Shown in pieces: positions 46,812-58,805 of a stretch of DNA of 64,000 bases. A program made the translations under genes and the position numbers. How positions within the stretch are numbered: the stretch's first letter is position 1; the number at the start of each line of letters is the position of its first letter. Origin of the DNA: Planktothricoides sp. SR001 (GTDB taxonomy: Bacteria; Cyanobacteriota; Cyanobacteriia; Cyanobacteriales; Laspinemataceae); the NCBI RefSeq assembly GCF_001276715.1, contig NZ_LIUQ01000038.1, forward strand, positions 1 through 64,000. Direction: 5' to 3'. The notes under the pieces are model-generated. The model did not search any database and had not been told where the DNA came from. It saw only the letters and a program-made list of their open reading frames with translations.

Positions 46812-47312
46812 ATGACTGAAGTAAATATTGAACCCATTGTTGCCGATGAAAACGAAAAAGCTGATTTAGCCAAATTAGCACAAATATTAAATATGCTGAA
46901 TAATGGTCACTCCGATCGCAAATTACAAATCCTGGATGGAGAAACCGGAGAAACCATCCCAATGCCTCAGTGTATCTTGCAGTTACTTCGCCAAGTTGTC
47001 CATCAATTTAACCAGGGAAAAGGGGTAGTTATAGAAACATTTCATCAGCCATTAACCATCAATGAAGCTGCCTATTTACTGAATTTTTCCCGGCAACATA
47101 TGGTAGAAATACTCCAAAATGGTGAGATTCCGAGTACCGGAGAAGGAGTTAATCGTAAAATTCAGTTTGATCATCTAATTGATTATCAGAAAAATTGGGC
47201 AAAATTGCGGCATAAAAATATTAGAGACATTGCCCAGATGAGCCATGATGCCGGTCTTTATTTTCTGGGATCTGAGTTAAGCGAACCAACCGCTAAAATA
47301 TCAGCAGAATAA
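46812..47312 (+). CDS. Antitoxin with excisionase-like HTH, 166 aa
   Basis: The central-to-C-terminal part has the excisionase/MerR-like fold seen in antitoxins paired with PIN toxins: PLTINEAAYLLNFSRQHMVEILQNGEIPSTGEGVNRKIQFDHLIDYQ. The N-terminal ~65 residues are acidic and helical. The start follows AGGAGAATTAACCG, a good ribosome binding site. The PIN toxin gene 22 bases downstream is broken, whereas this gene is intact. It probably repressed its own operon. Confidence 0.8.
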   Translation: MTEVNIEPIVADENEKADLAKLAQILNMLNNGHSDRKLQILDGETGETIPMPQCILQLLRQVVHQFNQGKGVVIETFHQPLTINEAAYLLNFSRQHMVEILQNGEIPSTGEGVNRKIQFDHLIDYQKNWAKLRHKNIRDIAQMSHDAGLYFLGSELSEPTAKISAE

Positions 47313-47334
47313 ACGCTTAATAGGAAATAGATTG

Positions 47335-47915
47335 ATGAAATCAGGTTTATTCAAAGTGGTCTTAGACGCTTGTATTTTATTTAAATCGTCCCTGCGAGAT
47401 ACTTTACTGCGTGCAGCGGAAAAAGGCATATATGATGTTTTGTTTATTGGAGTGAGACAATTCTTGAAGAAGTAAATCGGAATCTGCTCAAAACCGATAA
47501 GATGAATAGCCAGCAAGTACAGCGACTTTTATCGGCTATGCGCCAATTTTTCCCCAATGCTACAGTTAAGGGTTTTTAATTTCTGATTCCAGAGATGAAA
47601 AATGACCCAAAAGACCGCCATATCCTCGCGGCAGCAGTGATGGCTGAAGCTGATATTATTGTGACGAGCAATCTCAAAGATTTTCCCGCATCAGCTTTAT
47701 CAATTTATGAAATTGAAGCTTGGTCAGCGGATCAATTTTTAATTTGTTTATTTAATGAAAATCCGCAGATTATGACGCAAATTATTATAGAACAAGCAAA
47801 ACAGCTTCGTCAACCCCCAATTAGCGTCAGTGATGTGTTAAATGCTTTGGCAGTTGATGCGCCAAATTTTGTGGAATTGGTTCGATTTCATTTGCCGGAT
47901 TTGTATAACGATTAA
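47335..47915 (+). pseudogene. PIN-domain toxin broken by a frameshift and a stop
   Basis: The frame opens MKSGLFKVVLDACILFKSSLRDTLL, a PIN start with the catalytic Asp in VVLDAC. Frame is lost at about 47447-47453, where a missing base or so turns WSETILEEVNRNL into the next frame. A second lesion is the TAA at 47577-47579 (GGGTTTTTAA), just before FLIPEMKNDPKDRHILAAAVMAEADIIVTSNLKDFP. That block contains the remaining Asp residues of the PIN active site. The C-terminal ~75 residues continue intact to 47915. Without suppression no full-length toxin can be made. Confidence 0.85.
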
Positions 47916-48095: not shown

Positions 48096-48271
48096 ATGGG
48101 AAAACGCCATTGCTATCCGTATAATTCCATGATTTCTCCGTAAAAATACGGGATAGCTGTGTTAACTTTTTTTTGCGGCGATTTTGTGTCGATCGCTAAA
48201 AAATATGAGATAATGATCTATAGCGCTTTTTTATTGTTAATCATAGCCGTTAATTATAGCCTAACCGTTTT

Positions 48272-48742
48272 ATGAGTGCTCTGAAAATTAGGATTGCTAA
48301 AGATAAAGCTGAGTTGATTAAATCCTTAACTACTTCAGAAAATAATAACTCTCCCTTTCCCACCTATGCGGATGTGATGGTGTTTGCTGCGGCTTTGGGG
48401 GCAAAACGCAAGAAGCGATCGCCTTTGGGACAAATTTCTAAAAAAGATCCCGGCCCAATTAACTTGGATATTTTTGTCACCCGTGGGTACGATGTCGCCA
48501 TCAAATTATTGGCGATCGCCGAAACCAAAGACGCGAAAATTCTGGGGACTCTAGACCAAACAATGGTGGAAAAACGGCTGGAGATTTTTGAAGAATATGC
48601 CAATGGGGGGTTAGAAATTTTGCGGGATGAATTGCGCGGCGCCGTGGACTACACCGAGCAAATCATGTTAATGCTGATTTCTGAGCGGTTTAAGCAGGAA
48701 GATACCGGGCAGTTTTCTTTTGATTTGAGTAAGTTTTTGTAA
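48272..48742 (+). CDS. Dnd system-associated protein 4 homologue, 156 aa
   Basis: The product matches my recollection of the DNA phosphorothioation-associated protein 4 family: MSALKIRIAKDKAELIKSL, then PFPTYADVMVFAAALGAKRKKRSPLGQISKKDPGPI, and the C-terminal EEYANGGLEILRDELRGAVDYTEQIMLML. It is soluble and helical, with no catalytic motif known to me. The family occurs in phosphorothioation gene clusters, which fits the dndB/C/D genes a few kilobases downstream. It is the first gene on this side of the island, with a DGQHR-domain gene directly after it. Confidence 0.8.
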   Translation: MSALKIRIAKDKAELIKSLTTSENNNSPFPTYADVMVFAAALGAKRKKRSPLGQISKKDPGPINLDIFVTRGYDVAIKLLAIAETKDAKILGTLDQTMVEKRLEIFEEYANGGLEILRDELRGAVDYTEQIMLMLISERFKQEDTGQFSFDLSKFL

Positions 48743-48754
48743 AGAAACGTCAGG

Positions 48755-48806
48755 AAAGCCCAGAAACCGGGTTTCTTGGTTTCCCGAAAAGAAACCCGGT
48801 TTCTTT
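48755..48806. repeat. Palindromic repeat family A copy inside the Dnd island
   Basis: AGAAACCGGGTTTCT (48762-48776) and AGAAACCCGGTTTCT (48790-48804), only ~14 bases apart, placed between the Dnd-associated gene and the first DGQHR gene. The longer frame of the next gene would start inside this repeat. Confidence 0.85.
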
Positions 48807-48856
48807 CTCTAACAACAGATTTGTTTATCGATCTATATATAGGAGTCAACGAAAAA

Positions 48857-51046
48857 ATGCTAGGTCCATCAATCCAAGATTGGGAAGTTAAAACTCAAGG
48901 AACTTATGGCGAATTCCATACCCTTGCCGGAAAAGTCTCTTATTTAATGACTAAAGCCAAGCTAAAAGCAGATACTACTCCCGAAGGCATTCTGACTAAA
49001 TATTTAGCCCCAGTGCGCGAAGTTCTCAATATTGACGATCTGGATTTTAACCAATTGCTGCAACGGGATCTGGATGATTACCGGGTAGCCACAGATTTAG
49101 TCGATTATTTGCTTAAACCCAATTTTGGCGGTCCGGCATTTTATACGCCGATTCTTGCAGCAGTATTACCGTTTGATGGGCCAAATCCAATCGATAGTTA
49201 TCCTGAAAATCTAGATATTTCAGTTACCCAGGTTGATGGAAATACCTGGGAACAAACGCAATATGGAGAGGCATTTCGGGTGTTAAAATTCTGGGATAAG
49301 AATAATCAAATGCTGCATAAAACTCCCCTAGGTCGCTTAGATTTTAATACTAAGCACGTTAAACTGGTGGTGATTGATGGGCAACATCGGGCAATGGCAT
49401 TGTTAGCGATTCGTCGCACTATCGATCGCAATTGGGATGCGGGGACTGGTGGCGCTTATCGTTATTTTTATGAGAAACGAATTAACGAGTTATTAAATAA
49501 TCCGCCCCCTGATTTGTTGGAAAATATCGAATTTCCGGTCTGTATTTGTTGGTTTCCACACCCTACCTCTGACAATTCATTATGGCCAAATCCTCATAAA
49601 GCGGCGCGGAAGCTTTTTGTGGATGTAAATAAGAATGCGCGAACCCCCAGTAAATCTCGATTGATTTTGCTTTCGGATTCCGAGTTAACGTCTATTTTTG
49701 TCAGGGAATTTTTAAATCATCTCCGCACAAAAGATGCGCGGTTTCCTTTGCACGCCATTGAATACGATTATCCCCATGAACAAGGGGAAGGAGTGCCAGT
49801 TCGCAAGACGGCTTTAGCCAGCATTTTGATGCTCAATAGTGCTATAAAATGGGCATTACGCGGCCCAGATAAGTATATTAAAGATGTGAGTAAAACGATT
49901 CAAGGAACCGCGAAAAAAAGTGACAAAGACCGGCGACTTCAGTATGAATTAGAAATTAATAAATGGCTGGATTCAGAAATCGTCGATGAAGGAATGAATG
50001 GCCCGATCGCCTTTGTGAGAAATGATTTAACGAATGAGAATTTTCCCAAGACACAGTTAAAAACATTAATTGAAAAGTTTTGGGATGGCTGGGGCAGTGT
50101 GATTATGAATATTTTTTCTGAATTTTTTCCGTTTAAATGTCACATTGAAGCTTTGAAGGACTTACAAAATAACTGGACGGCTGGGGCGGCTCATGCTATT
50201 TTGGCAAATGATGCGATGTTCAAAGGGTTAGGGATTTACTGGACTCTTAAAGAAGATCACGAGCAATGGTTAAAAAATAATCAAACGGCTCGCTTGGATG
50301 GTGGTACAGTTCAAGATAAAACTGAAACCGTAAAAGCTTGGGAAATTATTCAATATAAAGAAAAAGAGTTTGAGCAGGAACGTGCCAAGAAATTATTTAA
50401 CCGGAAACGAGAAATTAATGATGAATTATTGAAAACTGCCGACAATATTTACAAGTGGCTGTTTACTCAGGCTTTTTTATCTGGTGCGGTCTTAACTTTG
50501 GCGAGTCTAAAACACGATTTAGGGTATGATGCCAAGACTTTTAAAGAACGGGCTGAAGTTTGGATCCGGTCTTGGAATTTGGCCTTAGAATTATCATTAG
50601 ATCGGATTAAGATATTCGATCGCCAACAAGACTATGCTTTTTTAGACTTTACCACACTATCTCCCGCTGATGCGGTCTATTTCCGGTATCTCTTATTAGA
50701 GTTTATGCAAGTTTCTCGAAGCGAGGAATTTACCCCGGAAGAAAAAGAGGCGATCGCCCGTCTTTTAAGTCAAGCAAGAAAATTGTATTTAGACGCTTTG
50801 GTAAAAGACGAAGAAAAAACCCTGAAAAAGAATTATCCCAGTATGACTTCTAAAGTTTGCCAACAAAAAGCCAATGTTAAGGCTAAAAACCGGATGAGTA
50901 AATTTTGTCGGAAATGGTTTGGCATTACTTCACAGCAATTTAGTGACTGGTTAGAGAATTTTGATAGACCATTAAATCAGGAAATTTCCACTTTAAACGA
51001 AAGTGAATATTCATATGAAGAGTCTGATTTTGATGATGATAATTGA
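48857..51046 (+). CDS. Large DGQHR-domain protein (DndB-related), 729 aa
   Basis: DGQHR at residues 174-178, inside KLVVIDGQHRAMALLAIRR, is the signature of the DndB superfamily. Before it lies a ~170-residue region (YGEFHTLAGKVSYLM). After it come CICWFPHPTSDNSLWPNPHKAARKLFVDVNKNARTPSKSRL-type blocks and a long C-terminal half of ~450 residues with no recognised domain. The end is acidic (EYSYEESDFDDDN). ATG 48857 (MLGPSIQDWEVK) is preferred because TAGGAGT lies 11-17 bases upstream and the in-frame extension to 48776 runs into a palindromic repeat. It is about twice the size of DndB and may be a regulator or a distinct partner; not a classical DndB. Confidence 0.82.
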   Translation: MLGPSIQDWEVKTQGTYGEFHTLAGKVSYLMTKAKLKADTTPEGILTKYLAPVREVLNIDDLDFNQLLQRDLDDYRVATDLVDYLLKPNFGGPAFYTPILAAVLPFDGPNPIDSYPENLDISVTQVDGNTWEQTQYGEAFRVLKFWDKNNQMLHKTPLGRLDFNTKHVKLVVIDGQHRAMALLAIRRTIDRNWDAGTGGAYRYFYEKRINELLNNPPPDLLENIEFPVCICWFPHPTSDNSLWPNPHKAARKLFVDVNKNARTPSKSRLILLSDSELTSIFVREFLNHLRTKDARFPLHAIEYDYPHEQGEGVPVRKTALASILMLNSAIKWALRGPDKYIKDVSKTIQGTAKKSDKDRRLQYELEINKWLDSEIVDEGMNGPIAFVRNDLTNENFPKTQLKTLIEKFWDGWGSVIMNIFSEFFPFKCHIEALKDLQNNWTAGAAHAILANDAMFKGLGIYWTLKEDHEQWLKNNQTARLDGGTVQDKTETVKAWEIIQYKEKEFEQERAKKLFNRKREINDELLKTADNIYKWLFTQAFLSGAVLTLASLKHDLGYDAKTFKERAEVWIRSWNLALELSLDRIKIFDRQQDYAFLDFTTLSPADAVYFRYLLLEFMQVSRSEEFTPEEKEAIARLLSQARKLYLDALVKDEEKTLKKNYPSMTSKVCQQKANVKAKNRMSKFCRKWFGITSQQFSDWLENFDRPLNQEISTLNESEYSYEESDFDDDN

Positions 51047-51088
51047 GGTTTAATGGGGCGGGTAAAAATTGGCAACTCCTAGGCAGTT

Positions 51089-51355
51089 GGCAGCGGATAG
51101 TTGGCAAGGGATGGGTTGACTGTTTTAGTCATAAATAGTGGTTGGCAACCGATGGGATAATGGTTTTTCTCTCTGTGTCCTTTGTGTCTCTGTGGTAAAA
51201 AAAATCACATTTTATTTTTTGATCGGCAGCGGATAGTTGCCAACGGATAGATTAACTGTTTTAGTCATAAATAGTGATTGGCAACCGATGGGATAATGGT
51301 TTTTCTCTCTGTGTCCTTTGTGTCTCTGTGGTAAAAAAATCACCTTTTATTTTTC
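51089..51355. repeat. Direct duplication of ~130 bp
   Basis: Segments 51089-51220 and 51225-51355 are nearly identical: GGCAGCGGATAGTTG..., ACTGTTTTAGTCATAAATAG, ACCGATGGGATAATGGTTTT, TCTGTGTCCTTTGTGTCTCT. They lie between two convergent DGQHR genes. No gene is supported in 51047-51389. Confidence 0.9.
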
Positions 51356-51389
51356 CATTACCCCATCAGTTATCCCATCCGTTGCCAAA

Positions 51390-52991
51390 TTACCCCAAAA
51401 TAGGAGGCAAAACGATTTTTTTCTGCTCCACAAATTTACCATCAAAGTTCATGGCTTGACTGCCAAAAGTACGAGCGATCGCCACTTCTTTCCGCAGATT
51501 AGCTCGCTCATAATTGTCAGTAATTCCCCCTAAAAGATACACCAGCAACTTGGCCGCTAAATCACGACCAGCCACTAACACCCGCTTGCGATTTGGGTCG
51601 TATAATATCCCATACCAAATAGACTGGGGATGTTCCATGCCACTAAAACCGCCGTCTGTATCAAACCGGCTAAGTTTTTCAAATAAACTCTCCAGAGAAA
51701 ATCCTTTTTCATAGACTAAAATACCCATCGCTTGAGCAAAAGCAACCTGACCCACGGGACGGAAAAGAAAATTCCCCTCACCGCCGCTTTTTTCATGGCT
51801 AAATCGGCGCATTTTTGGAGTTTCGGCTTCATATTCTAAACGTTCATAACTTAATAACTTGCTTAAATGGTCGAAAAGCTGACTAAATTCAGCCACTCCA
51901 GCTTCTAGTTCTTCATCTTCGGGACGCATGGGAATTAACCCTTTATTGTCTGAAGTTTGCCAAGTGGGAAAACGAGCAGATAAGTAACGCTCAGACATAT
52001 CTTTGAGCGCTTGTAAAGTGGTTAAAACTGTGGATTTGCTGGCGACCGTAGCACTATCCCAATTAACGCGAGGTTTGCGATATTTAGTTTCTTTAAATAA
52101 AGGATGTTGGACGGCAATTTTCCGAGCCACAATGGAAAAACCATCATCTTCATTTAGTACCGCTAATTGGCCTTTGCTGAGGTTAACGGCCATGAGGTTA
52201 ACATGGACAAAAATAGACCTAACTCGCAAGCGGGCTTCTTCGCGAGTTTCCCCTTTCACGACGGCGGGGATAAATTCAATGCCGATTTTTTCATAGGCTA
52301 AAGTTTGGACATGGTTGGGTTCAACTTGATATTGCTTTTGTAGGTCTTCAATGGTGATGGGATTACCGATCGCCTTTTTCTGTTTGTTATAGCGTTGAAT
52401 TTTGCCGGTTTTAATTAGTTGCATTAACCCTTGAACGCCCATGAGTCGGTGTTGGCCATCTAGGGCAAAAATAGAGACTTTTTCAGTAATGTCTAATAGT
52501 CCTACGGTGCCATCTTTATCTAATGGGGTGAAATCGGCGGCGGATTGGCGGGCGCGTCCTTGTTCGTCCCATTCGTCCGCGTGGGGGTCGTCTACCCAAC
52601 TGGCGCTGAGGACAACCAGGACGGCGGGGAATTTGTGGGCTTTGCGGGCGACCAGATACAGGCTGAGGGGCGCTTGTCTAGACCAGTCGAGGGGTCGTTG
52701 CAAGATATCGTCGATGGTTTCCTCGTCCCGGATTACGTTGTCGGTTTCCGGGTCAAATTTTTTGCGGAATAGGGGCAGTTGCGAGGCAAAACGGACTCGA
52801 CTGTCTAGCCATTCTAAGGTCACGGATCCAATGAAGGCTTCGGTGTTGCCCATGTGAGTCTGCTGGACTAGGAGGCGATCGCTTCTGGACAAATGGCGAT
52901 CTAATAGCAGGGCTAGGGCTTCTCGGTCTTGCTGATCCTGTTCCAGTATTTGCTTGGCAATGTTCGGAGGTTGTTTGGGGTCGCTGTTCAT
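51390..52991 (-). CDS. DGQHR-domain protein, 533 aa (second DndB relative)
   Basis: DGQHR at residues 178-182 within KVSIFALDGQHRLMGVQGLMQL. The N-terminus is helical and charged (IAKQILEQDQQDREALALLLDRH). After the signature come FIPAVVKGETREEARLRVRSIFVHVNLMAVNLSKGQLAVLNEDDGFSIVARK, which resembles the central part of DGQHR proteins, and a C-terminal alpha-rich region. It differs clearly from the other two DGQHR proteins here in length and flanking sequence. It is on the same strand as dndB and starts 203 bases after its stop, so it may be co-transcribed. Function inferred only from family and neighbourhood. Confidence 0.85.
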   Translation of the reverse strand: MNSDPKQPPNIAKQILEQDQQDREALALLLDRHLSRSDRLLVQQTHMGNTEAFIGSVTLEWLDSRVRFASQLPLFRKKFDPETDNVIRDEETIDDILQRPLDWSRQAPLSLYLVARKAHKFPAVLVVLSASWVDDPHADEWDEQGRARQSAADFTPLDKDGTVGLLDITEKVSIFALDGQHRLMGVQGLMQLIKTGKIQRYNKQKKAIGNPITIEDLQKQYQVEPNHVQTLAYEKIGIEFIPAVVKGETREEARLRVRSIFVHVNLMAVNLSKGQLAVLNEDDGFSIVARKIAVQHPLFKETKYRKPRVNWDSATVASKSTVLTTLQALKDMSERYLSARFPTWQTSDNKGLIPMRPEDEELEAGVAEFSQLFDHLSKLLSYERLEYEAETPKMRRFSHEKSGGEGNFLFRPVGQVAFAQAMGILVYEKGFSLESLFEKLSRFDTDGGFSGMEHPQSIWYGILYDPNRKRVLVAGRDLAAKLLVYLLGGITDNYERANLRKEVAIARTFGSQAMNFDGKFVEQKKIVLPPILG

Positions 52992-53194
52992 GGTTGCTGA
53001 GGAGCAATTTTTGTAAAGTTTTTGAAAATCGCTGGTTAATATGCTACGATACTTTTGCAGTTTTTAAAAAATAATGCGGTCTAGATAAAAACTACCTAGG
53101 ACGCCGATGCCTAATGCACATTTTTGTTTTTTTGTCAATATTTTAGGGTGCAACTATGTTCCAGAGTAGAGAGAAAAATTTAGTGGGCGATCGA

Positions 53195-54349
53195 TTACAT
53201 CCATCTTAATTCGCTTTTAGCTGCTTTAACTGCATCTGAGATTGCACCAGCACCCCATGCTATGTTTAAAGTTGTTTGGTTATTTTTTGTATTCAGTCTC
53301 ACGACATTTCTATGCCAAATAGGATTATTTCTCGACCAATCTAATTTAGCAATCTGTAAAACCTTAGAAAAATTAAAGCAATCCTGATTTTCCTCATAGG
53401 CACAATATAACAAACGGCCTAAAATTTCTAGTCCAACACTGACTCCTAGCAAACAAGTTTGTTTAAATTCCTTAATTTCTTCAACCGTCAGCTTTTCCAC
53501 GCTTGTTTGAGAAATATATTGAGTTTGTTGAGATGCTGAGAAAAAATAGTTAAAGCATTCAGATAATTTTTGTGAATATCGATCAATGTCAAAGCCATCT
53601 AAGCTATCATCTGATTGATCCGTTAAAGCAGAACTGGCTGCTCTGGCTATATAATTCGATGTGTAGATTAATTTACTATTTTTGTTAGGTTGTTTGCTGA
53701 CCTTATCTGTTTTACCGCGAAACATAGAAACTTGCTCTATTAAATTTTTAGTTATTCCACTCCTAGCAGATGATGGACTAAATGACAGCAGCAATGAGCG
53801 ATCGACAGGTTTTGCTTCAGCTAAATCTTTAAAATCTGTTTGACATTGGTGAAACCGATCCTCTAAAATAACAGTTATTGGTAAATTTTGGTCGTAAATT
53901 AGATGGTGTTGACCATTTTTAATCAATTCTGTAATAGCCTTTAGTCTATGTTGTCCATCAGTTAAATCTAATTTAATTGCTTGCGGAACCCGAACAATGC
54001 AAAATCCTCTATCTAGTTCATTGACTGTAATCATCTCTGGTGCTACATTCGCCGTGAATGTACCGAGTATCCAAGATTTATTTGAGATTACACGCTCAAT
54101 AATATATTGCTTAATCTCATCAGCATGACCAGGAATTTCTGGACGATCTTTACCTGATTCGGGATTGTTGGCTGTAGCAGGTTTTGCTTGCAATAAATTG
54201 GGCAAATCTAAAGCAGGAACATTAATTTGTAACAGAGTTCGTTTACCGTGATGAAAAATCAATCCGGGATAACACCGTTCATTATCTTTAGAGGTAAAAT
54301 ATAATTCCATGACAGATTGAAGATTTTCGGTTATGGCTGAATTACTCAA
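53195..54349 (-). CDS. dndB: DNA phosphorothioation regulator-type protein DndB, 384 aa
   Basis: The DGQHR motif is at residues 131-135 (KLDLTDGQHRLKAITELI). Length (384 aa) and the N-terminal LIFHHGKRTLLQINVPALDLPNLL fit DndB, which in studied systems represses dnd transcription and modulates modification. It is divergent from dndC, with a short spacer (94 bases to the preferred dndC start) that probably holds both promoters, a natural arrangement for a regulator. An internal Met at residue 14 (MELYFTSKDNE) is an alternative start. Downstream on the same strand is a second DGQHR gene. Confidence 0.85.
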   Translation of the reverse strand: MSNSAITENLQSVMELYFTSKDNERCYPGLIFHHGKRTLLQINVPALDLPNLLQAKPATANNPESGKDRPEIPGHADEIKQYIIERVISNKSWILGTFTANVAPEMITVNELDRGFCIVRVPQAIKLDLTDGQHRLKAITELIKNGQHHLIYDQNLPITVILEDRFHQCQTDFKDLAEAKPVDRSLLLSFSPSSARSGITKNLIEQVSMFRGKTDKVSKQPNKNSKLIYTSNYIARAASSALTDQSDDSLDGFDIDRYSQKLSECFNYFFSASQQTQYISQTSVEKLTVEEIKEFKQTCLLGVSVGLEILGRLLYCAYEENQDCFNFSKVLQIAKLDWSRNNPIWHRNVVRLNTKNNQTTLNIAWGAGAISDAVKAAKSELRWM

Positions 54350-54442
54350 AACTTAAGAATATTATATCATATTTTATTTTTGAATAATTACATAACAGTA
54401 TATTTATCATCAAAGGGCATCAAAGGGGGGCTATTCAAAAGA
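54350..54442. promoter_or_regulatory. Divergent dndB/dndC promoter region
   Basis: 93 bases, strongly AT-rich with ATATTATATCATATTTTATTT (54359-54379). It separates the oppositely transcribed dndB and dndC genes and is the likely operator for DndB-type control. AAAGGGGGG lies 14-20 bases before the preferred dndC start. Confidence 0.5.
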
Positions 54443-56011
54443 ATGATCGCAAATCAAATTTCACTATTTCCATCCCGAACAGTTAGTCAATTAGTTGAAG
54501 ATATTGAAAAGCTGAGTCAAGAAATTAAGTATTTATACTGCTTGGATGAGATTCCTTGGGTAATCGGTTATTCTGGGGGAAAAGATTCTACGGCAACTTT
54601 ACAGTTGATTTGGAATGCGATCGCCGAATTGCCTCAAGACAAACGCCAAAAAACTATTTATGTGATTACGACGGATACTTTGGTAGAAAATCCGATTGTT
54701 GCTGCTTGGGTGAAAAAGTCTCTAGAAAAAATTAAACTCACGGCACAAAAAGAAAATTTACCTTTCGAGCCGCATTTATTGCAGCCAGAAGTGTCTCTTA
54801 CTTATTGGGTTGGTTTAATTGGCAAAGGTTATCCGGCTCCTCGTGTGAAATTTAGATGGTGTACTGGACGATTAAAAATTGATCCATCTAATCGATTTGT
54901 TCGTAACATTGTTAGAGATAATGGAGAGGTGATTCTAGTTTTAGGAACTCGTAAAGCTGAAAGTTCAGCACGAGCTAAAAGAATGATAAAACTTGAAGAA
55001 AAGCGAGTGCGCGATCGCCTGAGTCCTAATGCAAATCTTCTGAATTCTTTAGTTTATAGCCCAATTGAAGATTGGCGGACTGATGAAGTTTGGCTATATC
55101 TAATGCAATGGGAAAATCCCTGGGGACATAGCAATAAAGATTTATTCGCCATGTATCGAGGAGCCACTGCGGATAATGAATGTCCGTTAGTAGTAGATAC
55201 TTCAACCCCTAGTTGTGGTAGTTCACGGTTTGGTTGCTGGGTTTGCACCCTGGTAGATAGCGATAAATCTTTAAACGCTATGATCCAAAATGACGAAGAA
55301 AAAGAATGGCTACAGCCTCTCGTTGATTTTCGTCTCGAATTAGATGTTATGAAGGATTACGATAAAAGAGACTTTCGCCGAATTTGGGGTACGGTTCAAC
55401 TCTTTGAACGGAATATTGATGGCAAAATTTCTGTAGAACCTATTCCAGGGCCATATACTAAAGAATATCGAGAATATTTGCTCAGGAAACTGCTGGAAGC
55501 GCAAACAGAAATTCGGCGAACTGCCCCGGAGGAAATGAGGGATATTACCCTGATTTCTGATGACGAACTCAGCGAAATTCGCCGGATTTGGCTGGAAGAA
55601 AAGCACGAGTTAGATGACAGTTTGCCGAAAATCTATGAAGAAGTCACCGGGCAACCTTTTAATGACCCGCGAGTAGGAGTTGCCAAAAAACTATTAGGCA
55701 GCGATGAATGGGAAATTCTTCAGGAAATTTGTGCTGAAGATTCGATGTATTTAGAACTGATGTCAAAACTGATTGGCACCGAATCCCACTATTACGTTAA
55801 ACGACGCGGCATTTTTGAAGCGTTGGATGGTTGCTTTGAAAGTAGTTCCCGTGATGAAAAAGACGCGGTAGGAACTGCTTATTATCAGCGGGATTTAAAG
55901 GTTGCCGCTGGGGGTGGGGGTATTGATGAGGTGAAACAGCTTGAGTTAAACCCTTGGTCGGACGTTAAATATGGGCAGCAAGGAGTGGATGCGGTGGATG
56001 GTGATGATTGA
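54443..56011 (+). CDS. dndC: DNA phosphorothioation sulfurtransferase DndC, 522 aa
   Basis: A PAPS-reductase-like ATP pyrophosphatase that activates DNA for sulfur insertion. The PP-loop SGGKDS is at residues 44-49 (WVIGYSGGKDSTATLQLIW). Cysteines at about residues 247-268 (DNECPLV, STPSCGSSRFGCWVC) are placed to hold an Fe-S cluster. FRWCTGRLKI with Cys near residue 142 and LGTRKAESSARAKRM are also typical. ATG 54443 (MIANQISLFPSRT) is preferred over an upstream TTG at 54380. It lies 56 bases upstream of dndD on the same strand. Sulfur would come from a cysteine desulfurase (DndA or IscS), which is not encoded here. Confidence 0.93.
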   Translation: MIANQISLFPSRTVSQLVEDIEKLSQEIKYLYCLDEIPWVIGYSGGKDSTATLQLIWNAIAELPQDKRQKTIYVITTDTLVENPIVAAWVKKSLEKIKLTAQKENLPFEPHLLQPEVSLTYWVGLIGKGYPAPRVKFRWCTGRLKIDPSNRFVRNIVRDNGEVILVLGTRKAESSARAKRMIKLEEKRVRDRLSPNANLLNSLVYSPIEDWRTDEVWLYLMQWENPWGHSNKDLFAMYRGATADNECPLVVDTSTPSCGSSRFGCWVCTLVDSDKSLNAMIQNDEEKEWLQPLVDFRLELDVMKDYDKRDFRRIWGTVQLFERNIDGKISVEPIPGPYTKEYREYLLRKLLEAQTEIRRTAPEEMRDITLISDDELSEIRRIWLEEKHELDDSLPKIYEEVTGQPFNDPRVGVAKKLLGSDEWEILQEICAEDSMYLELMSKLIGTESHYYVKRRGIFEALDGCFESSSRDEKDAVGTAYYQRDLKVAAGGGGIDEVKQLELNPWSDVKYGQQGVDAVDGDD

Positions 56012-56067
56012 TTTGAACAACAGATAGATAACGGATTCGCAACCCATAACCACATATATAATCAACC

Positions 56068-58071
56068 ATGATTCTCACTGAACTTGTCTTAGAAAATTTT
56101 GGCCCTTATGTGGGCAAACAAATCATTAACTTTCACCCGGAAGCCGAAGCTGGAGAAACCCGCCCGATTATCCTATTTGGCGGCATGAATGGGGGCGGAA
56201 AAACTACCCTGATGGATGCAATTCGCCTCGCTTTATATGGGTCACGGGCGCAATGTTCCACGCGGGGAAATTTGAGTTATGGTGATTTTCTCTCTCAATG
56301 TGTGAATCGCCAATCTCCGTTTACGGATAAAAGCCGTTTGGAGTTGGCTTTTAAACATATCGATCGCAATCGCTGGGTGGAATTAAGAATTGTCCGCTAT
56401 TGGACAAAAAACCCCAAAGACGGCAAAGATACGTTAGGGATTTTAGAGTGGAATGAAAGTCAGCAAGATTACTGGAAAGACGATTATCTAACGGAAACTT
56501 GGGACGAGTATATTGAAAATCTGCTGCCCCTGGGAATTTCTAACCTATTCTTATTTGATGGGGAACAGGTGAAAGAGTTAGCAGAACAAGAGGTTCCCCC
56601 CTCGACGGTGGTCAAAGCGATCGAGTCCCTGCTGGGCTTGGAATTAATCGAAAGGCTATCTATTGATATTGATATTCTCGTCAAGCGGAAACAAAAGAAG
56701 CTGGCGAATTTCCAACAAAAAATTAGTTTAGATGAAATTGACATCAAGCTGAAAAAATATCAGGCTGAGTTAGCGGAGGCACAAGCGGAGGAAGCTACCC
56801 TAAAAACTCAGTTGGAAAAAGCCGAAAAAAAAGCCAAAGAAGCCAGCGATCGCTTTCTCTCGGAAGGGGGTAAAATTGCCTCAAGAGAAGCAGACCTGGA
56901 AAGACAAAAAGCCGATTTAGAGGGGCAAATTGAGCGATCGCGCCAATATTTACGAGAATTAGCCGCCGAAAAATTACCCTTAGCATTAATTCAACCATTG
57001 CTAATAGCGGCCCGTACCCAAGGGGAAAGAGAAACCAAGCGACAACAGGCAAAAAATGCTCAAGCTTTAGTCCAAGCAACGGGCGATCGCCTCTTAGAGT
57101 ATATCAAAAACTTAAAATTAAAAGCCGACCAAATCAAAAAAATTGACCAATTTTTAGCGGACGAAAACCAACAACTATTAGATCAAATTGGTGCCGAAAA
57201 AGATGCCTGGTTAGCAGCGGACGAAAAAGCCTTAGAAACTCTGGGCATTGTGGTGCAATCTGACTTAGGCGATCGCATCAAATCCGCCCAACAAACTCGC
57301 GCCGAAATTGACCAGCTAGAACTGCAACTCAACGCCATAGAAAAACAACTGGCAGTTGCCCCACCGCCGGAAATCTATGAACAGTTAAAAAACGCGGTAC
57401 AAAAGACCCAAACCGCCTTAATCAAAGCCAGAATTAACTATGAAAACGCCCAGCATCTCGTTGTCCAACTAGAACGAGAAATTAACAAAGCCAAAAAAGA
57501 ATTAATCAATTATGTAGACAACACCATTGAACGCCAACAAGATGAACATACAATTAAAACAGCGGCCAGAGTCCAAGACACCCTAAAACTATTTCGGGAA
57601 AAATTAACCATCAAAAAACTCAGTAAACTCGAAAAAGAAGTCACCGACTGTTTCCGCTATTTACTCCATAAATTAGATTTAGTTCACCGGGTAGCCATTG
57701 ACACCAAAGACTTTAGCCTTTCTCTCTACGATCTCCAGGGAGAACCCGTGCCCAAACATCGAATTTCTGCCGGGGAAAAACAACTATTAGCGATCGCCTT
57801 TCTCTGGGGACTTGCCCGGGTTTCGGGACGGGAACTTCCGGTAGCCATTGACACCCCATTAGGTCGTCTCGACTCCGAACACCGGCAAAACTTAATTGAA
57901 CGTTATTTTCCCGCCGCTTCTCATCAAGTAATTCTCCTATCTACCGATACAGAATTAGGCAAAGAGGAAGTGAAAAAACTCCGCAAACAAAAGGCGATCG
58001 CCCGGGAATATCTCCTAAAATATAATGGAGAAACCCGCCAAACCAACATTGAACCCGGTTATTTTTGGTAA
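56068..58071 (+). CDS. dndD: DNA phosphorothioation SMC-like ATPase DndD, 667 aa
   Basis: An SMC/Rad50-like ATPase that works with DndC in DNA sulfur modification. The N-terminal P-loop GGMNGGGKTT (residues 38-47) follows LENFGPYVGKQIINF. A long coiled coil spans about residues 200-520 (AELAEAQAEEATLKTQLEKAEKKA...). The C-terminal ABC signature HRISAGEKQLLAIAFLWGLAR and Walker B PVAIDTPLGRLDSEHRQNL complete the nucleotide site. Length is normal. It follows dndC in the same operon and is followed 86 bases later by a ThiF-like gene. Confidence 0.93.
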   Translation: MILTELVLENFGPYVGKQIINFHPEAEAGETRPIILFGGMNGGGKTTLMDAIRLALYGSRAQCSTRGNLSYGDFLSQCVNRQSPFTDKSRLELAFKHIDRNRWVELRIVRYWTKNPKDGKDTLGILEWNESQQDYWKDDYLTETWDEYIENLLPLGISNLFLFDGEQVKELAEQEVPPSTVVKAIESLLGLELIERLSIDIDILVKRKQKKLANFQQKISLDEIDIKLKKYQAELAEAQAEEATLKTQLEKAEKKAKEASDRFLSEGGKIASREADLERQKADLEGQIERSRQYLRELAAEKLPLALIQPLLIAARTQGERETKRQQAKNAQALVQATGDRLLEYIKNLKLKADQIKKIDQFLADENQQLLDQIGAEKDAWLAADEKALETLGIVVQSDLGDRIKSAQQTRAEIDQLELQLNAIEKQLAVAPPPEIYEQLKNAVQKTQTALIKARINYENAQHLVVQLEREINKAKKELINYVDNTIERQQDEHTIKTAARVQDTLKLFREKLTIKKLSKLEKEVTDCFRYLLHKLDLVHRVAIDTKDFSLSLYDLQGEPVPKHRISAGEKQLLAIAFLWGLARVSGRELPVAIDTPLGRLDSEHRQNLIERYFPAASHQVILLSTDTELGKEEVKKLRKQKAIAREYLLKYNGETRQTNIEPGYFW

Positions 58072-58157
58072 ACAAAGGTAAGCTAAAAATAGCTGGGCAA
58101 TGCACATATAGCGATCGATATTTTTGCCGGTGATTTACCATAGAAAAAACTAAAAAA

Positions 58158-58805
58158 ATGTCTATATTTTTTCACGAACAAATCTATAGAACATCAGAAG
58201 TCATGGCAAAACTAAAAACATTGCCCGTGACAGTGTGCGGCGCCGGGGCACTAGGGGCTAATCTTACGGAAAGTTTAGCCCGCAGTGGCTTTAGTCAACT
58301 CAAAACCATCGATCGCGATCGCATAGAAGAACGCAACCTATCCACCCAACCCTATTATCGCTCAGATATTGGCGCATTCAAAGCCAAAATCTTAGCCAAT
58401 AGTCTTTATCGGGCTTTAGGGGTAAAACTGGAAATTGAAGCCAAAGAATTAACCCCCCAAAATGCCAAGCAACTTATTAGTAAACCGGGATTAGTCATTG
58501 ATACCTTTGACAATAGCATTAGCCGCCAAGCGGTCAAAGATTACTGCACCACCAACAACATTCCTTGTTTGCATCTGGGAATGGCCAGTGACTATGCCGA
58601 AATCATCTGGAACCAAGATTATCGCGTCCCCTCACCCACCAACGATGACATTTGTGAATATCCCTTAGCCAGAAATTTAGTCACCCTAACAGTGGCCGTT
58701 GCTTGTGAAGTCATCATCAACTTTACCGCCACCGAAAAACAGCAGAGTTTTACTGTCACATTAGGAGATTTTGCCATTAAACCGTTTCTCGCGGCTCAGT
58801 CCTGA
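58158..58805 (+). CDS. ThiF/E1-like adenylyltransferase family protein, 215 aa
   Basis: A Rossmann nucleotide-binding fold of the ThiF/MoeB/E1 family, which adenylates the C-terminus of small beta-grasp proteins or similar substrates. GAGALG (28-33) follows PVTVCGAGALGANLTESLARSG. The Asp/Arg block is IDRDRIEERNLSTQPY (51-66), corresponding to the DxDxVExSNLNRQ pattern. Lys77 lies in GAFKAKI and DTFDN at 115-119 matches the late Asp-Asn motif. It lacks the zinc CxxC pairs and a rhodanese domain and is shorter than MoeB. It lies 86 bases downstream of dndD, probably in the same transcript. Its partner and role in the Dnd context are unknown; the family's link to sulfur transfer makes a connection plausible. 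Confidence 0.8.
   Translation: MSIFFHEQIYRTSEVMAKLKTLPVTVCGAGALGANLTESLARSGFSQLKTIDRDRIEERNLSTQPYYRSDIGAFKAKILANSLYRALGVKLEIEAKELTPQNAKQLISKPGLVIDTFDNSISRQAVKDYCTTNNIPCLHLGMASDYAEIIWNQDYRVPSPTNDDICEYPLARNLVTLTVAVACEVIINFTATEKQQSFTVTLGDFAIKPFLAAQS

What the first reader, a model, noticed from the sequence alone, without database searches (positions are those of the whole stretch)
48272..58805. Dnd island with three unrelated-length DGQHR proteins
Classical phosphorothioation loci have one DGQHR protein, DndB. Here a 384-aa dndB-like gene, a 533-aa one and a 729-aa one surround dndC-dndD, together with a Dnd-associated protein 4 homologue. The DGQHR motif is intact in all three (131-135, 178-182 and 174-178), but the flanking domains differ. 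The large C-terminal halves of the two longer proteins have no domain I can recognise. They could be layered regulators, or components of an undescribed sulfur-dependent defence or nucleotide-sensing module.
Basis: partly seen in the sequence, partly recalled or inferred. Interest (0 to 1): 0.75.

Follow-up and report, generated by a model that had tools for sequence, protein, structure and literature searches.

The report
Long DGQHR protein of DNA-sulfur systems
In a cyanobacterial gene cluster that marks DNA with sulfur, one large protein turns out to belong to a widespread, apparently undescribed family found beside both known types of sulfur-marking genes, usually next to a probable DNA-cutting enzyme, which suggests that it senses the sulfur mark in an antiviral defence.

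Summary
In detail: three intact DGQHR genes (729, 533, 384 aa) lie with dndC, dndD and TIGR04062. Two of them are ordinary. In 94 cyanobacterial dndC loci the 533-aa gene is present in 65 and a DndB-family gene in 34. TIGR04062 (56 of 94) is probably PbeD. The 729-aa gene is the find. It belongs to an unnamed family. Of 80 relatives in bacterial genomes, 35 lie within 10 kb of dnd genes, 33 of ssp genes and 12 of neither (several on short contigs). The tree separates Dnd-type from Ssp-type members almost cleanly. In 56 of 80 loci a GIY-YIG-like protein is encoded directly upstream; an actinobacterial group has a GHKL ATPase instead. In cyanobacterial Ssp operons it sits just after sspD, where two other loci carry an SspE-like protein, and never together with it. 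Its predicted N-terminal domain best resembles SspE (weakly, Z 5.5); its helical C-terminal half matches nothing known. Best reading: an NTP-driven phosphorothioate-sensing effector subunit, with the nuclease encoded separately. The window's genome lacks the GIY-YIG partner, and DndE, PbeA and PbeC lie on other contigs, so this copy may be atypical. All functions are inferred.

The parts
48272..48742 (+). dnd_assoc_4 (TIGR04062); by position and size the counterpart of PbeD, which Rakesh 2024 (PMC10853773) calls the DndE cognate of the PbeC ATPase
   Evidence: follows PbeA-PbeC in many loci; no PADLOC PbeD hit, so the PbeD name is inference
48857..51046 (+). Long DGQHR protein (729 aa; a TTG at 48776 would give 756 aa, but relatives begin at the 48857 ATG). 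N-terminal DGQHR/ParB-like NTPase domain about 1-290, all-helical C-terminal domain about 390-704
51089..51354 (.). Two 130-nt direct repeats between the convergent genes; fragments of a repeat scattered over the genome (55 matches). Probably unrelated to function
51390..52991 (-). 533-aa DGQHR protein; standard neighbour of cyanobacterial dndC
53195..54349 (-). 384-aa DndB-family protein, a subfamily apart from the TIGR03233 equivalog; divergent from dndC
54380..56011 (+). dndC, PT sulfurtransferase (first ATG at 54443)
56068..58071 (+). dndD ABC-type ATPase

Best explanation
The 729-aa protein is the Dnd-type member of a family of PT-system effector subunits. Its N-terminal DGQHR domain (ParB/sulfiredoxin-type NTPase fold) probably reads the PT state of DNA and turns it into NTP binding or hydrolysis, as the DGQQR domain does in SspE and DndI. 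The helical C-terminal domain passes the signal on or carries DNA and partner contacts. In most relatives the cutting is done by a separate GIY-YIG-like nuclease encoded just upstream, so the pair would act as a split SspE/DndI: restrain or release on PT-marked self DNA, attack unmarked invader DNA. In this genome the GIY-YIG gene is absent; the protein follows a PbeD-like gene and may work with PbeA/PbeC (contig C140) or alone. The 533-aa and 384-aa proteins are most likely DndB-type regulators of the divergent dndCD operon. Shown: gene content, family linkage, genomic slot, fold prediction, purifying selection. Inferred: PT sensing, NTPase activity, cutting, every partner interaction.
For: 68 of 80 relatives are within 10 kb of dnd (35) or ssp (33) genes; 9 of 12 hits in 386 cyanobacterial genomes sit in ssp loci and 3, the window included, in dnd loci. 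The system type follows the tree: 38-row Dnd clade with SH-aLRT 100, 11 label changes against 36 in shuffles (quick tree). In cyanobacterial ssp operons the gene comes straight after sspD, with or without the small GIY-YIG-like gene between; 2 of 13 loci without it have a DGQQR SspE/GmrSD-like gene next to sspD; none of 22 has both. In dnd islands it lies between TIGR04062 and the 533-aa gene, where others carry PT-dependent HNH-enzyme relatives (17 of 52) or an SspE-like protein. GIY-YIG-like gene upstream in 56 of 80. QR, DGQHR and FxxxN motifs conserved. The only two PDB matches with Z of 5 or more are SspE. dN/dS 0.185/0.507 against the nearest relative. SspE and DndI precedents: PMC11662687, PMC9646914 (the latter from its abstract).
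Against: No HNH or other nuclease domain in the protein. Profile comparison with six DGQQR SspE/GmrSD-like proteins gives no real match (probability 4.8%), and Z 5.5 is weak. The GIY-YIG match is below Pfam's cut-off (14-20 of 22.6 bits). The window's genome has no such partner (with positive controls), and its nearest relative L180 has neither this gene nor dndC nearby. DndB, the best-studied relative, is a repressor in Salmonella (PMC4507180).
Confidence: 0.5

Rival explanations
1. The long protein is a DndB-like regulator: its NTPase fold senses ATP and represses dnd/ssp genes or limits PT insertion, and the helical half is for DNA binding or oligomerisation.
For: N-terminal profile match to DndB (86%) and to the 533-aa protein (97%); RefSeq names its relatives DndB; DndB is an ATP-modulated repressor (PMC4507180, PMC10853773).
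Against: Most Dnd-type loci (31 of 35) already have a true DndB; it takes the SspE slot in ssp operons; it is coupled to a nuclease-like gene.
Confidence: 0.25
2. It helps the modification step itself, for example as an NTP-driven factor that loads or licenses DndC/DndD/DndE or SspB/C/D on DNA.
For: It occurs with both modification machineries, and in cyanobacterial ssp operons it lies within the modification operon.
Against: About 9 of 22 cyanobacterial ssp loci and 3 of 94 dnd loci have it, so modification does not need it; SspE, which takes the same position, has been shown to be an effector (PMC9646914, abstract).
Confidence: 0.12
3. In this genome the gene is a remnant: the GIY-YIG partner is lost, dndE and pbeA/pbeC are displaced, and the protein no longer works.
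For: No GIY-YIG-like gene in the genome; the neighbouring PIN gene is broken; L180 keeps the gene without a dnd locus nearby.
Against: Open frame with all motifs; N-terminal dN/dS 0.088/0.377 and whole gene 0.185/0.507 against L180; DndE, PbeA and PbeC families are still in the genome.
Confidence: 0.13

Closest known systems
SspE (Ssp PT system effector) and DndI (IscS-DndBCDE-DndI)
   Same: Encoded with PT modification genes; N-terminal DGQ(H/Q)R NTPase domain of the ParB superfamily; in ssp operons the same position after sspD; best PDB match of the N-terminal domain is SspE (Z 5.5)
   Different: No HNH (DUF1524) domain; DGQHR instead of DGQQR; large unrelated helical C-terminal domain; a GIY-YIG-like gene in trans; no sequence-profile match to the SspE/GmrSD set tested
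DndB (TIGR03233) and the DGQHR domain family (TIGR03187 / PF14072)
   Same: QR, DGQHR and FxxxN motifs; N-terminal profile match; RefSeq calls several relatives DndB
   Different: About twice the length; below all curated cut-offs; coexists with a true DndB in 31 of 35 Dnd-type loci; also in ssp loci
TIGR04172 DGQHR_dnd_1 (PMC3226654)
   Same: Named earlier as an extra DGQHR protein restricted to PT loci
   Different: 381-position family; the long protein does not match it
PbeABCD (PMC6459918; reinterpreted in PMC10853773)
   Same: Dnd-coupled defence cassette; its A, C and D-type genes are often beside the long protein, and the window has the D-type gene
   Different: The long DGQHR protein is not one of the Pbe proteins; in the window's genome pbeA/pbeC are on another contig

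Membership tests
DndB equivalog (TIGR03233) | Score over the curated cut-off of 328 bits | tested here: not met
   729-aa: not listed; 533-aa: 18 bits; 384-aa: 66 bits. A 370-aa protein in L109 scores 392
DGQHR domain (TIGR03187) | Score over 58.85 bits | tested here: not met
   For the 729-aa protein 28.2 bits; the 533-aa (176) and 384-aa (65.8) proteins pass
DGQHR domain (TIGR03187) | QR pair, DGQHR pentapeptide and FxxxN motif (as described in PMC4619093) | tested here: met
   Q69-R70, D174-R178, F254xxxN258, invariant in all 60 aligned family members
SspE / DndI (GmrSD type) | N-terminal ParB-like NTPase fold related to SspE | tested here: inconclusive
   VIA Z 5.5 (7drr) and 5.4 (6jiv), the only rows at 5 or more; hhalign against six DGQQR proteins 4.8%
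SspE / DndI (GmrSD type) | C-terminal DUF1524 HNH nuclease domain | tested here: not met
   No such hit among 60 family members in Pfam or NCBIfam
SspE / DndI (GmrSD type) | NTPase activity that responds to PT-DNA | not testable with these tools
   Needs purified protein
GIY-YIG nuclease (the partner gene) | Over Pfam PF01541 cut-off and GIY...YIG...R...E residues | tested here: inconclusive
   Motif residues invariant, Pfam 14-16.6 bits (20.1 in G101) against 22.6, best PDB rows UvrC GIY-YIG at E 0.13
Canonical Dnd modification module | dndC, dndD and dndE in one operon | tested here: not met
   dndC-dndD here; dndE (134.7 bits) on contig C112
PbeABCD | pbeA-pbeC-pbeD cassette beside dnd genes | tested here: not met
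   Only the D-type gene is in the window; pbeA (662 bits, TIGR04095) and a PbeC-type ATPase gene are together on C140

The most novel reading that the evidence does not exclude
The long DGQHR protein and its GIY-YIG-like partner form a two-gene PT-sensing restriction module, with sensor and nuclease on separate proteins, that replaces SspE/DndI and works with both the double-strand (Dnd) and the single-strand (Ssp) PT marks.
Probability: 0.42. Interest if true: 0.72.

Novelty: new variant of a known kind. Interest (0 to 1): 0.58.

Why it matters
PT-based defence has several known effectors (DndFGH, PbeABCD, SspE, DndI, SspFGH), yet many dnd and ssp loci have no obvious one. A large family now lumped with DndB by automatic annotation would supply an effector for many of them, in Streptomyces and relatives, Proteobacteria and cyanobacteria. 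It would also be a case of one sensor family serving both PT chemistries, which makes the question of how DGQ(H/Q)R NTPases read sulfur directly testable by comparison.

Tried and rejected
Foldseek of the full model and of the C-terminal half against PDB gave nothing at E <= 0.001, and the C-terminal half had no VIA row at Z 5 or more, best 4.3; this does not show a new fold. Sequence search of the family profile in PDB: only chance rows. The ThiF-like gene 58158-58805 as a dnd component: rejected, none of the surveyed cyanobacterial dnd loci has it. Phage origin: no match in phages. The 130-nt repeat as an operator: rejected, it belongs to a repeat scattered over the genome. First guess that the long family is a Dnd speciality of cyanobacteria: rejected, most cyanobacterial members are in ssp loci. 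First guess that the neighbouring ~700-aa ATPase was a duplicate DndD: it is PbeC-type. Literature: searches for DGQHR, and for GIY-YIG with phosphorothioate, found no description of this family or pair, but only open-licence papers are held and supplements were not readable.

Full report
WHAT IS THERE. The dndC and dndD genes score 685 and 642 bits. TIGR04062 scores 183.5. The three DGQHR proteins carry the motif at the stated residues. The 384-aa protein is in Pfam DndB (248 bits) but far under the DndB equivalog (66 of 328 bits). The 533-aa protein passes the DGQHR model (176 bits). The 729-aa protein passes nothing (28 bits). Its true start is most likely the ATG at 48857: relatives begin there, and the extra 27 residues of the longer reading are not conserved.

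HOW COMMON IS THE ARRANGEMENT. In 386 genomes of the phylum, 94 have dndC over the cut-off. Of these 94 loci, 65 have the 533-aa gene, 56 TIGR04062, 48 dndE and 34 a DndB-family gene within 9 kb of dndC. Usual order: PbeA-type helicase (TIGR04095), PbeC-type ATPase, TIGR04062, an exchangeable gene, the 533-aa gene on the other strand, sometimes a DndB-family gene, dndC, dndD, dndE, TIGR04096. So two of the three DGQHR genes are routine. Six of 94 loci have three DGQHR proteins, with different membership.

THE EXCHANGEABLE POSITION. Between TIGR04062 and the 533-aa gene, 52 loci carry, among others, a relative of PT-dependent HNH enzymes (17, plus 2 with an AIPR gene), a DndB-family gene (10), the long DGQHR protein (3) or an SspE/GmrSD-like DGQQR protein (1). 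HNH relatives and DndB-family genes avoid each other over the 94 loci (33, 34, both 3; Fisher p = 4e-5).

THE LONG PROTEIN IS A PT-LINKED FAMILY. A search of genome contigs with an alignment gave 116 relatives; the best 80 were fetched. Within 10 kb, 35 have dnd genes, 33 have ssp genes, and 12 have neither, several of these on short contigs. The search used conserved peptides and kept the best hits, so this is not a census. Closest in kind are full-length relatives at 35-38% identity in Streptomyces, Amycolatopsis, Mycobacterium, Geomonas and Burkholderiales, next to dndA-E. Cyanobacterial ssp-linked relatives are more distant (21-27% over the alignment). A quick ML tree separates a Dnd clade (38 rows, SH-aLRT 100) from the ssp-linked rows; 11 label changes are needed against 36 in shuffled labels. 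RefSeq calls the ssp-linked members DndB.

IT SITS WHERE SspE SITS. Of 22 strong sspD loci in the cyanobacterial set, 9 have the long protein straight after sspD, in 6 of these with the GIY-YIG-like gene between. Of the 13 others, 2 have a DGQQR SspE-like protein there and 2 a shorter DGQHR protein. None has both.

THE PARTNER. In 56 of 80 loci a frame of about 200-350 codons lies directly upstream, usually overlapping the start of the long gene's frame. It has invariant G-Y-A-W-Y, P-Y-G, R, H and E residues in the order of GIY-YIG nucleases. Pfam GIY-YIG is found at the same place but under its cut-off, and the best PDB rows are the GIY-YIG domain of UvrC, at E 0.13. An actinobacterial group has a GHKL-type ATPase there instead (69 bits). 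The window has neither, and the whole genome has no GIY-YIG-like match, while four control genomes do. In L186 (Cyanobacteria bacterium FACHB-502) the order is pbeA-pbeC-TIGR04062-GIY-YIG-like-long DGQHR-dndB-dndC-dndD-dndE, so the window looks like a reduced form of that operon.

STRUCTURE. The AlphaFold model of the whole protein is good (pLDDT 88.3, pTM 0.87), and that of the C-terminal part alone better (94.1, 0.92). The N-terminal domain's only matches at Z 5 or more are two SspE entries (5.5 and 5.4, 147-151 residues at 3.5-3.7 A). That is weak, and a profile comparison with six SspE/GmrSD-like proteins failed, while DndB and the 533-aa protein match by profile. The helical C-terminal half has no clear match.

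THE HOST GENOME. DndE is on contig C112, PbeA- and PbeC-type genes on C140. The PT machinery is thus present in full but dispersed, apart from the cysteine desulfurase, which was not searched for. The long gene evolves under constraint (dN 0.185, dS 0.507 against L180; N-terminal part 0.088/0.377, C-terminal part 0.248/0.645).

MECHANISM. SspE and DndI show the logic: a DGQQR NTPase senses PT in host DNA and controls an HNH nuclease (PMC11662687; PMC9646914, abstract). The long family has the sensor-type domain, the same genomic positions and a separate probable nuclease. I therefore read it as the sensor half of a split effector, at 0.5. Regulator, modification helper and remnant are the rivals. 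No activity has been tested.

KNOWN OR NEW. Extra DGQHR proteins in PT loci (TIGR04172), TIGR04062 itself (PMC3226654), URI/GIY-YIG genes near dnd loci, and PbeD as a DndE cognate (PMC10853773) are known. I found no account of the long family, of its pairing with a GIY-YIG-like gene, or of its sharing between Dnd and Ssp. The literature held is partial.

Noticed in passing
94 cyanobacterial dndC loci, e.g. L085, L089, L119, L128: Relatives of PT-dependent HNH restriction enzymes (NF045808, below cut-off) sit in 33 of 94 dnd loci, almost never together with a DndB-family gene (3 shared, p = 4e-5). An enzyme that cuts PT-DNA beside the genes that make PT is a paradox; HNH genes with a PT-binding domain in Dnd loci are known (PMC10853773), the mutual exclusion I did not find described.
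   Followed up: partly
window 46812-47915 and L180 7800-8968: An HTH-PIN gene pair directly upstream of TIGR04062 in both. The PIN gene is intact in L180 and broken in the window by a frame change and a stop.
   Followed up: yes
window 58158-58805: A ThiF/E1-like gene lies where cyanobacterial dnd loci usually have dndE; it is not found in the other dnd loci surveyed.
   Followed up: partly
window 48200-48219 and 54356-54375: A similar AT-rich 20-mer (85% complementary) lies upstream of TIGR04062 and in the dndC/dndB-like divergent region; perhaps a shared promoter or operator.
   Followed up: no
L086 (G340) slot gene, 801 aa: An SspE/GmrSD-like protein (DGQQR, PF03235 80.7 bits) in the exchangeable position of a cyanobacterial dnd island, that is a DndI-like gene in cyanobacteria.
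   Followed up: partly
L014 and L018: Mixed loci with ssp genes, the long DGQHR protein, an HNH gene and a BrxL (392 bits in L014), like a BREX type 4 / Ssp hybrid; in L018 the BrxL gene is interrupted by a stretch that carries an integrase-like gene.
   Followed up: no
L093 and L104: An AIPR abortive-infection gene (PF10592, 115 bits) added beside the HNH gene in two dnd islands.
   Followed up: no
window 51089-51354: Two 130-nt tandem copies that belong to a repeat with 55 partial matches over the genome.
   Followed up: yes
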